A DNA stretch of 36,498 nucleotides, taken from IMG/VR virus record IMGVR_UViG_3300036791_001073, positions 1 to 36,498 of that record, one strand, 5' to 3'. This DNA is from a virus. The notes under the pieces are model-generated. The model saw only the letters and a list, made by a program, of their open reading frames with translations. It did no database searches and was not told where the DNA came from. This document shows, in pieces, positions 4,499 to 35,669 of this stretch. The position numbers and the translations under genes were made by a program. Each line of letters begins with the position of its first letter. Positions within the stretch are counted from its first letter, which is position 1.

Positions 4499-4536
4499 TA
4501 GACAAATTGTCCTTGCCTCTGGACAGCCCGTTTGAT
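4499..4536 (+). promoter_or_regulatory. Operator and promoter of the recombination operon
   Basis: TAGACAAATTGTCCT (4499-4513) is a near-copy of the repressor operator. It overlaps a candidate -35 TTGTCC (4508-4513), which is 17 bases from a candidate -10 TTTGAT (4531-4536). A TGGACA half-site follows at 4520-4525. The arrangement suggests repression of the downstream exo/ERF genes by the repressor or the Cro-like protein. The promoter match is moderate (4 of 6 in each box). Confidence 0.5.
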
Positions 4537-4538
4537 AC

Positions 4539-4561
4539 GGTCTCCCCGACGATGGGAGACC
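4539..4561 (+). promoter_or_regulatory. 8-bp inverted repeat covering the exo ribosome binding site
   Basis: GGTCTCCC (4539-4546) and GGGAGACC (4554-4561) are perfect inverted copies with a 7-base loop. The right arm contains the GGGAG Shine-Dalgarno of the GTG start at 4565. In RNA this would hide the ribosome binding site; in DNA it could be a protein-binding palindrome. If transcription starts near 4543, only part of the left arm would be in the transcript. Confidence 0.55.
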
Positions 4562-4564
4562 AGG

Positions 4565-5347
4565 GTGCTAACCTCACATCAGATCGAGCAGCGCCGCGGT
4601 AAGTTGACCGCAAGTCGTGTCGCATGCCTGATGACCGGCGATGCCGTCGCCATCATGCGGCTTTACCGCGAGATGACCGGCGAAGAACAGCCCGAGGATC
4701 TCTCGCGCGTCTGGCCGGTGCGTCTTGGCGAGGCTACAGAGCAGCTCAATCTCGATTGGCTCGAACAGTCCGGCGTGGCGCTCGTGCGGCGCGGCCATGT
4801 CATCACTCATCCCCGGCACGACTGGGCAGCCTGCACGATAGATGCCTGGTGTGTGGAATTGGATTGCCCGTGCGAGGCCAAGCACGTCGGTGGGCGGGAG
4901 CCTCTGGAGATCGTCGTCGAACGCTATCAGCCGCAAATGCAGTGGCAGATGGAATGCACCGGGGCAACGCAATGCGTGCTGTCGGTCATCATGGGCGCCA
5001 ATCCCCCGGTGGTGGAATATATCCGGCGCGATGAGGAATATGCCGCCGAGATGGTCAGGCGCGGCCGGCAATTCATGACCTGCGTCTCCAATCTGCAGGA
5101 GCCTGTGGCGCTGCCCGCCGTTCCTGCGCCGGTGGACGCGACCAAGGTCATCGACATGACCGGGAACAACATGTGGGCCGACAATGCCGCCGTCTGGCTC
5201 GCAGTGAAAGATGCTGCGGCAGAGTGTGAAACCGCATCAAAGATACTCAAGGCCACCGTTCCAGCCGATGCGAAGAAAGCATGGGGACACGGCGTGCGTA
5301 TTACACGTGATCGCGCCGGACGGCTGTCGCTTCGGGAGGACACATGA
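4565..5347 (+). CDS. YqaJ-family phage exonuclease, 260 aa
   Basis: This belongs to the lambda Exo-like YqaJ nucleases, which resect double-stranded ends to give 3' single strands for the annealing protein. Visible motifs are RRGKLTASRVACLM (residues ~10-23), LGEATEQ with Glu (~54-60), the active-site Asp in CTIDAW (~93), E-x-K in CEAKH (104/106), and QMQWQME (~124-130). The GTG start has GGGAG 6 bases upstream; an in-frame ATG at 4532 lacks such a site and lies within the promoter region. The stop overlaps the ERF gene start by ATGA. Exo next to an annealing protein is the standard two-gene phage recombination module. Confidence 0.9.
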   Translation: MLTSHQIEQRRGKLTASRVACLMTGDAVAIMRLYREMTGEEQPEDLSRVWPVRLGEATEQLNLDWLEQSGVALVRRGHVITHPRHDWAACTIDAWCVELDCPCEAKHVGGREPLEIVVERYQPQMQWQMECTGATQCVLSVIMGANPPVVEYIRRDEEYAAEMVRRGRQFMTCVSNLQEPVALPAVPAPVDATKVIDMTGNNMWADNAAVWLAVKDAAAECETASKILKATVPADAKKAWGHGVRITRDRAGRLSLREDT

Positions 5348-6258
5348 CCACCGACCTCATGCAAATCCCGGAAGATCCGGCGCCGCTCATGCACATGATC
5401 GAGCGCGCGGCGCGTGACCCCAGCTTTCCGATCGATCGGCTGCAACAGCTGATGGCCCTGTACGACGCGCGAGGGGCGAAGGAGGCCGAGAAGGCCTGGA
5501 ACATCGCGATGGCCGCAGCGCAGGCGGAAATGATCCCGGTAGCCAAGGACAGCGACAACCTGCAGACGCGATCGAGATACGCGAGCTATGCCGCGCTGGA
5601 TGCCGCGGTGAGGCCGATTTATTCGAAGCACGGGTTCGCGCTGTCGTTCAACACCGTACCGGACGCGAATGTGAACAGCATCCGGATTGTGTGCGACGTG
5701 GTCAACGGCGGATTTTGTCGGCGATACTCCATCAACATGCCGGCCGACGGCGTCGGCGCCAAGGGCAGCGCCGTGATGACGCGCACCCATGCCGCCGGTT
5801 CCGCGGTCACCTACGGCATGCGGTATCTGCTGAAGATGATCTTCAACATCGCGGTCGGCGAGGGCGATGACGACGGCAATGCCGCCGGCAGGCGCATGCC
5901 GCCACCGCGCTACGGCGCCAATCCAATGAGATCACCCCCGGCGTATCGCGACGACGACGACGACTCCCAGCCGCCGGGGGATGATGCCCCGCCCTCCACG
6001 AGCCACTCGACAGAGGGCGGGGCAGCCTCTCCCGCAGAGGACAGCATGCGGATTGCGCGGCTCGACGCCGAGCTGGGCGAGGCCGCCAAGCGTGGCATGG
6101 TCGAGCTGCAGGCCGCGTGGAGGAAGATACCTGCGTCCGACCAGAGGATACTCGAGGCCGCGAAGAACAAGCGCCACAAGCCAACCGCCATCAAGGCCGA
6201 CAATCAGGAGGGCAATGGAGATGGGTCGCCGAAAACTAGCAGCAAAGGAAGTGATTGA
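5344..6258 (+). CDS. erf: ERF-superfamily single-strand annealing protein, 304 aa
   Basis: ERF proteins coat and anneal complementary single strands in phage recombination and genome circularisation. The core spans about residues 35-180 and carries the family signature GSAVTYGMRYLL (~152-163) followed by DDDGN (~175-179). The C-terminal third is a disordered linker with an acidic run of five Asp and then a charged helical tail (RIARLDAELGEAAKRGMVEL), resembling the usual partner-binding tail of these proteins. It starts at the ATG overlapping the exo stop and ends inside the next gene, which begins 38 bases before its stop. Confidence 0.92.
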   Translation: MTTDLMQIPEDPAPLMHMIERAARDPSFPIDRLQQLMALYDARGAKEAEKAWNIAMAAAQAEMIPVAKDSDNLQTRSRYASYAALDAAVRPIYSKHGFALSFNTVPDANVNSIRIVCDVVNGGFCRRYSINMPADGVGAKGSAVMTRTHAAGSAVTYGMRYLLKMIFNIAVGEGDDDGNAAGRRMPPPRYGANPMRSPPAYRDDDDDSQPPGDDAPPSTSHSTEGGAASPAEDSMRIARLDAELGEAAKRGMVELQAAWRKIPASDQRILEAAKNKRHKPTAIKADNQEGNGDGSPKTSSKGSD

Positions 6259-7081
6259 AATCCAGGAAGTCCACCAGGACGAGATAAAATTCTATCTGGT
6301 CGGGACATCCCCTCTCATCATGCATCGTTTCCCTTTCAAGGCTTGGCAGGAGATGCTTCTCCCATCCCGCAGGATGAATCAGGCGAGTCTGGAACAGACA
6401 CTCAAGCATAATCCGATGGGGGAGTATCGAGAGTCGTTCTATCGCAACAGGGAAGAGGCGACCCCGACCCTGTTTCACCTTCCCAACGGCATGCTTCACG
6501 GGGCGCTGGCTGCTGCAGCGCTCGACATTCCAGGCTCGGCAAAGGCGCAGATATTGCGGCTGACGCGCATTGTCGACATCAACATCAATTTATATGGTAT
6601 TCCGCAAATGTTTTGCGCGATGGTGCGCAACAGCGGCATAAACCGCGCACCAGACGTACGCACGCGGCCGATTTTTCCCCAATGGGCATGCAGCGTTACT
6701 GTTAGATACGCCAGCTCGATTGTAACCCGAGGAGCCGTCGGAAACCTGATGGGCGGCTCGGGGGTAATCGTTGGTATTGGCGACTGGCGAATTCAAAAGG
6801 GTGGCCCCTTTGGCGGGTACCGCCTGACGGATCCCAAGGATAAGGAATGGTTATCGATCTTCAGCAAGCAGGGCAGGCGAGTGCAGCAGGCCGCGTTTGA
6901 TGCGCCCGGATATTACGACCAGGACACGGAAGACCTGATGACTTGGTACGAGAACGAAATCAAGCTTCGTGAGCAGCCTTCTAAGGCCAATGGCAGGCAC
7001 AAGCAGCCGCGGTTGCGCCGCCCGACGGTAATCGTTACCGGATCAGAAAACGAGGAAGCCGTGGTTGGAGGATTGTCGTGA
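6221..7081 (+). CDS. Conserved phage protein of the recombination operon, 286 aa, possible RAMP-like fold
   Basis: The second of two close ATGs (6221) is chosen because AGGAGG at 6206-6211 is 9 bases away; the first (6215) is only 3 away. The N-terminal half contains IKFYLVGTSPLIMHRF and FHLPNGMLHGALAAAALDI. The C-terminal half contains PQWACSVTVRYASSIV and a Gly-rich loop, GGSGVIVGIGDWRIQKGG. Proteins of this kind sit beside exo/annealing genes in other temperate phages (from memory). The two-part layout with a 'P-x-x-x-x-GAL' helix and a late Gly-rich loop recalls RAMP/Cas7-type ferredoxin folds, but this is only a resemblance. Its start overlaps ERF and its stop overlaps the next gene (GTGA). 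Confidence 0.7.
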   Translation: MGRRKLAAKEVIEIQEVHQDEIKFYLVGTSPLIMHRFPFKAWQEMLLPSRRMNQASLEQTLKHNPMGEYRESFYRNREEATPTLFHLPNGMLHGALAAAALDIPGSAKAQILRLTRIVDININLYGIPQMFCAMVRNSGINRAPDVRTRPIFPQWACSVTVRYASSIVTRGAVGNLMGGSGVIVGIGDWRIQKGGPFGGYRLTDPKDKEWLSIFSKQGRRVQQAAFDAPGYYDQDTEDLMTWYENEIKLREQPSKANGRHKQPRLRRPTVIVTGSENEEAVVGGLS

Positions 7082-7548
7082 GCAGCAAGGCAGACGCAAT
7101 TCGCGCCGAGCTTGAACAATGCAAGGACGTCCGCGGCAGGATCCTGCCGCGGCTGATCGTCAAGAGGGCGAGAAACAAGAAGAGCGCTCTGCATTCGAAG
7201 TTCGAATGGAGCGACGCCAAGGCGGCCGACCAGCAGCGCCTCGAACGCGCCCGGGAGCTGATCGGCTTGTACCTCACCGTCGTGGTCGTCCACCGAAATC
7301 GGCGCATCGTCTCGCCAATGTATGTGAGCGATACCCGGGCTCAGCCAGGGCATGTCCTCATCGGCGATCTTACCAAAGACAATGCGGTCGCAACGGTGCA
7401 GGCAGAGATCGCCAGGTGCGATGGGTCCCTCACTCGCGCGCGCGGAGTCGCCACGCAACTCGATCAAAAATACCCGGGATTGCTGAAGTATCTCGACACG
7501 GCGCTGCGTGCCCTTGGCGGCGCGGAGAAACTCGTCGCGGCAGCGTAA
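7078..7548 (+). CDS. Hypothetical protein of the recombination operon, 156 aa
   Basis: A GTG start (7078) with a GGAGG upstream overlaps the stop of the previous gene. The protein is basic and helical: SKADAIRAELEQCKDVRGRI, then HSKFEWSDAKAADQQRLERA, then an aliphatic beta strand (LYLTVVVVHR) and YVSDTRAQPG, ending in a second helical region. The 'FEWsD...A..qRLe.AReLI' stretch resembles a family of small phage proteins that also occur near recombination genes (from memory). No catalytic motif is evident. It is the last gene before the pentamer array, so array DNA would be transcribed from the same operon. Confidence 0.68.
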   Translation: MSSKADAIRAELEQCKDVRGRILPRLIVKRARNKKSALHSKFEWSDAKAADQQRLERARELIGLYLTVVVVHRNRRIVSPMYVSDTRAQPGHVLIGDLTKDNAVATVQAEIARCDGSLTRARGVATQLDQKYPGLLKYLDTALRALGGAEKLVAAA

Positions 7549-7550
7549 TC

Positions 7551-8022
7551 AGGCATGGCAGGCGAGGCAGGCAAGGCGAGGGAAGGCGGGGCTAGGTCTG
7601 GTCTGGCCCGGCGGGGCGCGGCAGGCGTGGTCTGGTGAGCGGGGGCACGGTGCGGTCTGGCGTGGCAGGCACGGCCAGGTCAGGTTTGTTAGGGCAAGGT
7701 TTGGCGAGGCAAGGCAGGCATGGCGAGGCCAAGCGAGGGCCAGGCTCGGTTGGGCTGGGTCGGCATGGTAGGCATGGTTGGTGTGGCGAGGCACGGCGTG
7801 GATGGTGCGGCAAGGCAGGCCGGGTCGGGTGCGGCAAGGCGGGGCGAGGTCTGGTATGGCGGGGCGGGGCAGGCAAGGCCGGGCAGGCGCGGCGGGGTCC
7901 GGTTAGGTTAGGCAGGGCAGGGCAGGCACGGCAGGGCGAGGTCTGGTCTGGCGAGGCAGGCGTGGCGAGGCGTGGCAGGCGAGGTCCGGTTAGGCAAGGT
8001 CCGGCGAGGCAAGGCTCGGCAG
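7551..8022 (+). repeat. Degenerate (YNNGG)n pentamer array, about 470 bp
   Basis: From the end of the upstream gene to the Shine-Dalgarno of the next, the plus strand is almost entirely pentamers ending in GG (caagg, cgagg, tctgg, cgtgg, ttagg, tccgg and so on), about 90 units, with occasional 4-mers such as cagg shifting the phase. The first base of a unit is nearly always C or T and positions 2-3 vary freely. Because the unit is not a multiple of three and lacks stop triplets, long open frames appear in several frames on both strands. These are not supported as genes. The strand bias (GG on the coding-side strand) favours G-quadruplex or R-loop formation when transcribed. Function unknown. 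Confidence 0.9.
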
Positions 8023-8032
8023 GAGTGAGAGC

Positions 8033-8188
8033 ATGATCATTTCAGTATTCGTCGGTGGCGTGCTCTTGCTCGCCGCAATCCTCATGCGGCGGATGGAGCG
8101 CGCCGAGCTGCAGCGCGAGCAGGATATCCGGCGCCTTCGTCAGCGCGTAATCCGCAGAATATACACAAGTGGAGAACAAAATGTCTGA
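8033..8188 (+). CDS. Small single-pass membrane protein, 51 aa
   Basis: The ATG at 8033 is preceded by GGAG with 7 bases spacing. Residues 2-18 form one hydrophobic segment (MIISVFVGGVLLLAAILMRR). The rest is a charged helix (MERAELQREQDIRRLRQRVI) that probably lies in the cytoplasm. The stop TGA falls inside the start of the next gene (ATGTCTGA), so the two are coupled. It is too short for family assignment. A lysogeny-associated membrane peptide is possible; holin function is unlikely this far from the lysis genes. Confidence 0.7.
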   Translation: MIISVFVGGVLLLAAILMRRMERAELQREQDIRRLRQRVIRRIYTSGEQNV

Positions 8189-8435: not shown

Positions 8436-8528
8436 ATGGCCAACCGGCTGCACACACTGGCCGAGGCCGCCGATGATCTGCTTCGCATTTATCCACACCT
8501 TTTGTTAGGGTTAGCAAGCTATGTCTGA
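8436..8528 (+). CDS. Possible small gene, 30 aa
   Basis: The frame (MANRLHTLAEAADDLLRIYP and ten more residues) starts at an ATG with GGAG 5 bases upstream, 4 bases after the previous stop. It ends in a TGA inside the ATG of the Xis-like gene (ATGTCTGA), the same junction as at 8181-8188. It may be a true peptide or only a leader that couples translation into the Xis-like gene, which has a weak ribosome site of its own. It contains a perfect DnaA box. Confidence 0.5.
   Translation: MANRLHTLAEAADDLLRIYPHLLLGLASYV
8489..8497 (+). promoter_or_regulatory. DnaA-box sequence TTATCCACA
   Basis: An exact match to the consensus DnaA box within the small 30-codon frame upstream of the Xis-like gene. 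A single box is weak evidence of an origin. It may allow DnaA-dependent regulation or be chance. Confidence 0.4.
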
Positions 8529-8862
8529 CCAGCGCGAACGTGAGCGTGGCACTGTGCCCGACGCCGTCCAGATCCTCGGGATCGGGATGCGGACCGTGGA
8601 GGCAATGGCAGCTCGCGGGGCGATCCCTAGTGCAGCCAAGATCGGCGGCCGCTGGACATTCAATCTGCGTGCTCTGCGGGCATACGTCAAAGAGCGGGAG
8701 CGAGAGACATGGCAAAACGCAGAGCGCCGCCTGGATGCTTTTGGCGGGGAGATATCCTTTTCGGCCGCAAGCGCATCAATGGCCGCCTCGTCCGGTGGTC
8801 GCTCGAAACAAGCGATCCAGCAGTTGCTCGTCAGCGCCAAAAAGCAGGCGCGAGCAAGCTGA
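8521..8862 (+). CDS. Excisionase-like winged-helix protein, 113 aa
   Basis: Residues ~10-60 (VPDAVQILGIGMRTVEAMAA, then RGAIPSAAKIGGRWTFNLRA, then LRAYV) follow the excisionase/MerR-type pattern: a helix, a turn, a wing with IGGRW and a final helix. Such proteins bend attP DNA and steer integrase toward excision. The charged C-terminus (YVKERERETWQ and onward) overlaps the first 51 codons of the integrase gene in another frame, so the two are overprinted. Translation is probably coupled to the preceding small frame. The HTH assignment is good; the Xis role rests on its position beside int. Confidence 0.75.
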   Translation: MSDQRERERGTVPDAVQILGIGMRTVEAMAARGAIPSAAKIGGRWTFNLRALRAYVKERERETWQNAERRLDAFGGEISFSAASASMAASSGGRSKQAIQQLLVSAKKQARAS

Positions 8863-9767
8863 CTGCTGTCAAGCATGGCGACATCACGCGGACATATGCT
8901 GACACGATCGAGTTATGGTCCAAGTGGATCGGACGACAAGTAAGCCCCGGCACCGTCAAGCGCTACGCCGTTTCGCTCGGCCAGCTTGATGGGCTTATCG
9001 GCGATGCACGCCAGATCTTGGATATCGACGGTAAGTTGATCGCGGAGATTGTTCGTGCTCGCACCGCCGCCGGGGCAACCAACGCGACCATCAAGCGCGA
9101 CCTCGGCGCTCTTTCTAGCGTAATGAACTTCGCCATGGACCAGGGATGGATCGAGACCAACCCAGTCCTGCCCCGGCTGAGGCGGATCAAGGAGCGGCGC
9201 AATCCCATCGTGCTTCCGATCAGGCGCGACATCGACCTCGTAATCGAGCGGGCGCCCGGCATGCTTAAGGATCTGGTTGAAGCGGCAATCGCTACCGGCG
9301 CGCGGCAAACCGAACTGCTTAGTGCCAAGCGCGAGCATGTCGACCACGCCCGCCGGCAGATCACACTCTACAAGACCAAGCGGAACAAGCCGCGGACGAT
9401 CGACCTGGAACCGCTCGGCGGCTATCTGCTCATCCAAAGCCTCCCGACCTATGTTGGATCGCCGCTGCTGTTCTGGCATTCAAACGGCCAGCCATATCGG
9501 AACTTCTCCAGCCAGTTTGCCGGTGTGGTCGCTCGTGCGCGCGAGTGGGCGGTGGCGAACGGCGCCGAGTTCCGCCGATTTCGCTTCCATGACCTGCGCC
9601 ATCTGCACGCCGTCGAGTTCCTGAAAGCGGGGGGCGACATTTACGACCTTTGCAAGCGCATGGGACACTCGTCGGTCAAGGTGACTGAAGGATACCTGGC
9701 CTATCTGACCGCAGACGAAGAGCGCGCCGCAAAGAGCCAAAAAATCAGCGTTGGGGGTCGGCAATGA
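8709..9767 (+). CDS. int: Tyrosine recombinase integrase, 352 aa
   Basis: This site-specific recombinase would join attP to the bacterial attB and, with Xis, reverse the reaction. The catalytic set is visible: Arg ~199 in TGARQTELLSA, Lys ~222-224 in LYKTKRNKPR, FHDLRH with His 294 and Arg 297, MGHSS with His 320, and the nucleophile Tyr 329 in TEGYL. The N-terminal ~60 residues are a basic arm-type DNA-binding domain, followed by a core-binding SAM-like domain (~64-155). The start ATG has a GGAG 8 bases upstream and lies inside the Xis-like gene. The stop overlaps the second Xis-like gene by ATGA. The adjacent attP fits this enzyme. Confidence 0.95.
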   Translation: MAKRRAPPGCFWRGDILFGRKRINGRLVRWSLETSDPAVARQRQKAGASKLTAVKHGDITRTYADTIELWSKWIGRQVSPGTVKRYAVSLGQLDGLIGDARQILDIDGKLIAEIVRARTAAGATNATIKRDLGALSSVMNFAMDQGWIETNPVLPRLRRIKERRNPIVLPIRRDIDLVIERAPGMLKDLVEAAIATGARQTELLSAKREHVDHARRQITLYKTKRNKPRTIDLEPLGGYLLIQSLPTYVGSPLLFWHSNGQPYRNFSSQFAGVVARAREWAVANGAEFRRFRFHDLRHLHAVEFLKAGGDIYDLCKRMGHSSVKVTEGYLAYLTADEERAAKSQKISVGGRQ

Positions 9768-35593: not shown

Positions 35594-35669
35594 TGGCAGA
35601 AGTGGAGGGACTCGAACCCCCAACCCCCGGTTTTGGAGACCGGCGCTCTAGCCATTGAGCTACACTCCT
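35594..35669 (-). tRNA. tRNA-Trp (anticodon CCA)
   Basis: A complete 76-base cloverleaf with encoded CCA. The acceptor AGGAGTG pairs with CACTTCT (one G-U). The D stem is GCTC/GAGC, the anticodon stem CCGGT/ACCGG around loop CTCCAAA (anticodon CCA), and the T stem GGGGG/CCCTC with loop TTCGAGT. The discriminator base is G. The first base lies inside the TAG stop of the upstream protein gene, so RNase P processing would cut that mRNA at its stop codon. Phage-encoded tRNAs usually support late translation or replace host tRNAs damaged by defence systems. Confidence 0.96.

What the first reader, a model, noticed from the sequence alone, without database searches (positions are those of the whole stretch)
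7551..8022. A ~470-bp array of degenerate YNNGG pentamers beside the recombination genes
About 90 units end in GG with a pyrimidine first and free middle bases, with occasional 4-mers. Pentamer periodicity rules out ordinary coding, and the purposeful strand bias (GG on the transcribed-operon sense strand) points to RNA or G-rich single-strand structures. It directly follows exo/ERF and precedes the integration genes. It could be a recombination hotspot, an R-loop-primed origin, a packaging or circularisation site, or a sink for a host defence. Unit-level divergence with kept GG spacing implies selection on spacing rather than sequence.
Basis: partly seen in the sequence, partly recalled or inferred. 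Interest (0 to 1): 0.78.

Follow-up and report, generated by a model that had tools for sequence, protein, structure and literature searches.

The report
Phage-encoded VIPR guide-RNA array
This phage carries a long string of YNNGG five-letter repeats next to a gene related to CRISPR RNA-binding proteins, which is the signature of the recently described VIPR system that phages appear to use to find and silence the DNA of competing phages.

Summary
Window 7551-8022 is a 472-nt, G-strand-only array of about 96 units: 80 pentamers (78 starting with a pyrimidine) plus tetramers, mostly CAGG. Its lag-5 identity is 0.575 against 0.346±0.019 in shuffles. It is not a recombination hotspot, origin or packaging site. 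The two genes just upstream are a RAMP-like protein (6221-7081) and a small partner (7078-7548). A profile of the RAMP-like family finds the solved SUSP1 Vipr protein at E=2.4e-41, and its model folds like Csm3/Cas7. Of 120 viral loci fetched only by a period-5 GG pattern, 90 encode this family, against 1 of 120 (period 6) and 0 of 120 (period 4). The locus is therefore a VIPR system (PMC13142463, preprint 2026), with the array as concatenated vrRNA guides.

In this clade guides are joined without tails by CAGG, typically every 7-13 pentamers (79% of gaps, 26% expected). In mycobacteriophages with nearly identical vipr genes, whole CAGG-bounded blocks are gained or lost. The window's own spacing is less regular (p=0.08). 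No natural target was identified. The paper's supplement could not be read, so this layout may be its 'staggered arrays'.

The parts
6221..7081 (+). vipr: RAMP (Cas7/Csm3-like) protein, 286 aa, phrog_4652; about 75-aa C-terminal extension beyond the ~205-aa core
   Evidence: Family profile vs PDB: SUSP1 Vipr (36pp_D) E=2.4e-41; AlphaFold2 pLDDT 82.8, Foldseek best hits all CRISPR RAMPs, prob about 1.00; phrog_4652 matched by 55/55 members
7078..7548 (+). vap-like accessory gene, 156 aa, phrog_15946; its GTG start overlaps the vipr stop
   Evidence: Family B profile found in 27 of 120 array loci; no known fold; not detectably homologous to the SUSP1 gene next to vipr
7551..8022 (+). vrRNA (guide) array of YNNGG pentamers with CAGG tetramers, G-rich strand = sense strand
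7572..7621 (+). guide segment of 10 pentamers bounded by CAGG (NN: AA GA AA GG TA CT CT CC GG GC)
7626..7665 (+). guide segment of 8 pentamers bounded by CAGG
7670..7714 (+). guide segment of 9 pentamers bounded by CAGG
7719..7815 (+). irregular stretch with other 4-mers (TCGG, TAGG, TTGG, ATGG) and one 6-mer; probably two guides, boundaries uncertain
7820..7869 (+). guide segment of 10 pentamers bounded by CAGG (NN: CG CG GC AA GG GA CT AT GG GG)
7874..7922 (+). guide segment(s): 2 pentamers, CAGG, 7 pentamers
7927..7975 (+). guide segment(s): 6 pentamers, CAGG, 3 pentamers
7980..8019 (+). last guide segment, 8 pentamers; the final CAGG runs into the ribosome-binding-like AGGAG before the ATG at 8033

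Best explanation
The array is the guide-RNA array of a phage-encoded VIPR system. Shown here: a vipr (RAMP) gene, a small accessory gene and a G-rich-strand YNNGG array lie head to tail on the same strand, and this association recurs across many phages. Inferred from the VIPR paper: the array is transcribed, Vipr protomers assemble along the YNNGG units, the GGY positions do not pair, and the NN dinucleotides pair with double-stranded DNA as NN-x-NN-x (one base skipped, usually the codon wobble base). The complex then represses transcription of competing phages or prophages. Inferred here: CAGG tetramers mark the borders between successive guides, so this array holds roughly nine guides of about 8-11 units that can be gained or lost as blocks.
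For: Profile hit to SUSP1 Vipr, E=2.4e-41, and reverse: the family profile finds phage SUSP1's vipr at 6e-42. RAMP fold by Foldseek. 90/120 period-5 loci carry vipr against 1/120 period-6 and 0/120 period-4 controls (Fisher p<1e-37), with 88/90 on the array's strand. Searching by protein instead, 10 of 14 vipr loci have arrays. Three gene orders keep the trio together: vipr-vap-array (window), array-vipr-vap (Mycobacterium), vipr-array-vap (Gordonia). The NN dinucleotides of 6285 units resemble codon positions 1-2 of phage genes best of six readings (r=0.48; 1000/1000 bootstraps; N1 purine 66%, N2 50%). The published system has the same YNNGG repeat, gene pair and fold (PMC13142463).
Against: No natural target found: 9-unit patterns of two guides gave 0 and 1 hits in viral contigs, and one of them 3 hits in unrelated genomes, which is about chance; the local search against 2.4 Mb shows no clear skip-1 excess over unit-order shuffles. 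No 3' tail like that of SUSP1 vrRNAs was found in the window. 30 of 120 array loci showed no vipr, though several are fragments or simple repeats and one (L070) has vipr elsewhere on its contig. The codon resemblance is only moderate.
Confidence: 0.93

Rival explanations
1. A cis-acting DNA element: recombination hotspot, origin with R-loop or G-quadruplex, packaging or circularisation site.
For: G-rich single-strand bias and position near exo/ERF and integrase.
Against: Position relative to replication, recombination and structural genes is not conserved, whereas linkage to vipr is. Period-4 and period-6 GG repeats show no such linkage. The NN content resembles codon positions.
Confidence: 0.03
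2. A low-complexity protein-coding gene, as annotated in some mycobacteriophages (for example Donkeykong gp48).
For: Open frames of 81-133 aa run across the array; several phage records annotate such frames as hypothetical proteins.
Against: Neither library matches the 133-aa frame. Unit gains, 5-nt indels and CAGG tetramers shift the frame between close relatives.
Confidence: 0.01
3. A drifting satellite repeat with no function (slippage product).
For: 5-nt unit duplications and losses occur between close phages.
Against: NN bases are highly variable while GG and the tetramer marks are kept; the linkage to one protein family across distant phages is far beyond chance.
Confidence: 0.02

Closest known systems
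VIPR (Viral Interference Programmable Repeat) systems, type II of phage SUSP1 and a Pseudomonas fulva prophage (PMC13142463; PDB 36pp)
   Same: Vipr RAMP gene, small accessory gene, YNNGG repeats on the coding strand, phage location.
   Different: SUSP1 has separate ~100-nt vrRNAs, each with leader and 3' tail. The window has one continuous ~96-unit array without repeated tails, joined by CAGG. Its accessory protein is not detectably homologous to the SUSP1 gene next to vipr.
Class 1 CRISPR-Cas (Csm3/Cas7 backbone on crRNA)
   Same: RAMP fold; repeat-containing guide locus.
   Different: No cas operon, no CRISPR repeats and spacers; pentamer code with gapped pairing.
Composite arrays in Mycobacterium cluster F (Cheoctovirus) and Gordonia phages
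   Same: Same vipr and vap families, same YNNGG units with CAGG every 8-11 pentamers.
   Different: Different order of genes and array; mycobacteriophage arrays end in a perfect hairpin TTGGCTGG-GCAA-CCAGCCAA, which the window lacks.

Membership tests
VIPR system | Vipr protein homologous to SUSP1/other Viprs | tested here: met
   Profile E=2.4e-41 to 36pp_D; single-sequence search only E=0.071
VIPR system | RAMP fold with G-rich loop | tested here: met
   Foldseek matches at E<=0.001 are all CRISPR RAMP-containing complexes; invariant G181, G185, R190, G198
VIPR system | vrRNA of tandem YNNGG repeats with conserved GGY and variable NN next to vipr | tested here: met
   78 of 80 pentamers start with Y; array starts 2 nt after the vap-like gene
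VIPR system | Accessory vap gene beside vipr | tested here: met
   phrog_15946 gene overlaps the vipr stop and recurs in 27/120 loci; whether it is one of the named vap1-6 could not be checked
VIPR system | Phage-encoded | tested here: met
   Terminase, integrase and recombination genes in the window
VIPR system | vrRNA expressed and bound by Vipr | not testable with these tools
   Needs small-RNA sequencing or pull-down
VIPR system | Guides match DNA targets with a 1-nt skip | tested here: inconclusive
   No convincing target; NN composition fits codon positions 1-2
VIPR type II (SUSP1/P. fulva) | Each vrRNA of 9-16 repeats ends in a conserved structured 3' tail | tested here: not met
   No repeated tail between guide segments in 7551-8022; SUSP1 guides do carry one
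CRISPR-Cas | CRISPR repeats with unique spacers and cas genes | tested here: not met
   No such repeats; neighbours listed

The most novel reading that the evidence does not exclude
In this VIPR clade the array is a tail-less concatemer of guides in which the tetranucleotide CAGG is a dedicated border: it ends one guide and starts the next, and it is the joint at which whole guide blocks are inserted, lost or exchanged. That would be a CRISPR-like modular guide store in phages without a known integrase.
Probability: 0.45. Interest if true: 0.75.

Novelty: new member of a known kind. Interest (0 to 1): 0.6.

Why it matters
It explains a puzzling repeat seen in many phages, some of it mis-annotated as proteins, as guide RNA. 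It adds well-sampled laboratory phages (Mycobacterium smegmatis cluster F, Gordonia) in which near-identical vipr genes carry different guide sets, so how VIPR guides are gained and what they target becomes directly testable.

Tried and rejected
Rfam gathering scan of the window found only a tRNA. Single-protein tblastn of vap against phages found nothing; vipr found six phages. A full-family alignment was too diverse for the search for related loci, and three close vipr sequences found no relative in genome contigs. The first guide scan had a script error (both bases compared at one position) and was discarded; one search replaces it. Local target searches under skip 0-3 and unit-order shuffles gave no clear targets: 9-unit matches not fished for by pattern were a guide of L057 against L051 and a guide of L138 against L088, the latter in codon register by eye; suggestive only. 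A guide shared by cluster F phages had no match in viral contigs. The one viral hit of window guide 7820-7869 (L131) lies in codon register but its tenth unit mismatches and about one hit is expected by chance by my estimate. RNA folding of the array is only mildly more stable than shuffles (z=-2.8).

Full report
Observation. Window 7551-8022 holds a G-strand-only array of YNNGG units. Lag-5 identity is 0.575 against 0.346±0.019 in shuffles, and GG...GG pairs 84 against 29.7±4.3; nothing else in the window is similar. Parsed, it has 96 units: 80 pentamers, 78 of them starting with a pyrimidine, and 93 units ending in GG. It starts 2 nt after the stop of a 156-aa gene and ends by merging into the ribosome-binding-like AGGAG of an ORF at 8033.

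Neighbourhood. Upstream lie a YqaJ/RecE-like exonuclease (4532-5347), an ERF annealing protein (5344-6258), a phrog_4652 protein (6221-7081) and a phrog_15946 protein (7078-7548); downstream an HTH protein (8521-8862) and a tyrosine integrase (8709-9767).

Lead. A distant DNA search hit only cluster F (Cheoctovirus) mycobacteriophages, at a similar array. There the array lies directly upstream of homologues of the same two genes. In Gordonia phages it lies between them. Three gene orders with the same three parts point to one functional module.

Association test. 90 encode the phrog_4652 family, 88 of these on the array's G-rich strand. The same test with period 6 gave 1 of 120 and with period 4 gave 0 of 120, about 1 Mb each (Fisher p=5e-38 and 7e-40). 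Starting from the protein instead, 10 of 14 relatives have arrays; two of the four without are cut off at the end of the gene.

Identity. The literature search found the VIPR preprint (PMC13142463): phage-encoded RAMP proteins (Vipr) with guide RNAs of 9-16 YNNGG repeats that recognise DNA with one skipped base per dinucleotide, and that repress competing phages. The window's family matches the deposited SUSP1 Vipr at E=2.4e-41, and the family profile finds vipr in the SUSP1 genome at 6e-42. The AlphaFold2 model (pLDDT 82.8) matches Csm3 and other Cas7-like RAMPs with probability about 1.00. TM-scores are modest (up to 0.53), perhaps partly because of a C-terminal extension. The partner protein has a confident model (pLDDT 90.9) but no confident fold match.

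Array grammar. Across arrays, 254 of 387 tetramers are CAGG. In 39 arrays with at least three CAGG, 79% of the 187 gaps are 7-13 pentamers, against 26±3% if CAGG were placed at random. The window alone is less regular: 5 of 10 gaps, p=0.08, not significant. Fifteen cluster F phages could be parsed. All carry vipr-vap 98.8-100% identical to Saal's, yet their arrays differ by whole CAGG-bounded blocks: ByChance lacks one 59-nt block and Donkeykong has two extra. They also differ by single 5-nt units, and the four base-level differences I could see all fall at NN positions. Mycobacteriophage arrays end in a perfect hairpin with a GCAA loop; the window shows no such tail. I infer that CAGG is a guide border and exchange joint. 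That is inference from pattern, not shown function.

Reading rule. The NN dinucleotides of 6285 units resemble codon positions 1-2 of phage genes better than the other five readings (r=0.48, all of 1000 bootstraps; N1 66% purine, N2 50%). This fits, independently of any target, a one-base skip at the wobble position. A structural preference for purine after the pyrimidine is not excluded.

Targets. None convincing. Window guide 7572-7621 (nine units): 0 hits in viral contigs, 3 in unrelated genomes, of which the one in L208 (Christensenellaceae) is clearly in codon register. Guide 7820-7869 (nine units): 1 viral hit in codon register in an actinophage-like gene, tenth unit mismatched, about one expected by chance by my own estimate. 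Local all-against-all gave no clear excess.

Verdict. A VIPR locus, high confidence. It is not a type II layout, and which of the seven published types it belongs to could not be determined because the supplement was not readable. The CAGG border and block turnover may be new detail or may be part of the 'staggered arrays' the paper mentions.

Noticed in passing
L002 3478-3864 (Donkeykong gp48); L210 1499-1663 (Gorge gp53); L212 1479-1643 (BobaPhett gp51); L214 1479-1643 (DRBy19 gp51): VIPR arrays annotated as hypothetical proteins in mycobacteriophage records.
   Followed up: partly
L133 (contig 3300031890_000019) and L134/L126 (3300002504_000038): Close vipr relatives (56-59% identical) with no dense array nearby, or only weak clusters; possibly degraded arrays or a different guide layout.
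   Followed up: partly
G002:C1 56025-56477: A second, weaker Vipr-like match (E=4.7e-10) far from the vipr gene in the same viral contig.
   Followed up: no
window 6850-7078: C-terminal extension of about 75 aa on the window's Vipr, beyond the ~205-aa core; L133 seems to share it.
   Followed up: no
L130 2585-2886 (Pseudomonas phage LESphi2): Three short arrays about 120 nt apart upstream of a vipr homologue, resembling the separate vrRNAs of SUSP1.
   Followed up: no
window 35597-35669: A tRNA gene on the - strand near the end of the window, possibly related to the integration site.
   Followed up: no
L088, - strand, position about 2600: Nine consecutive dinucleotides of an L138 guide match with one-base skips, apparently in codon register (read by eye); suggestive of a real target between two VIPR-linked phages.
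   Followed up: partly
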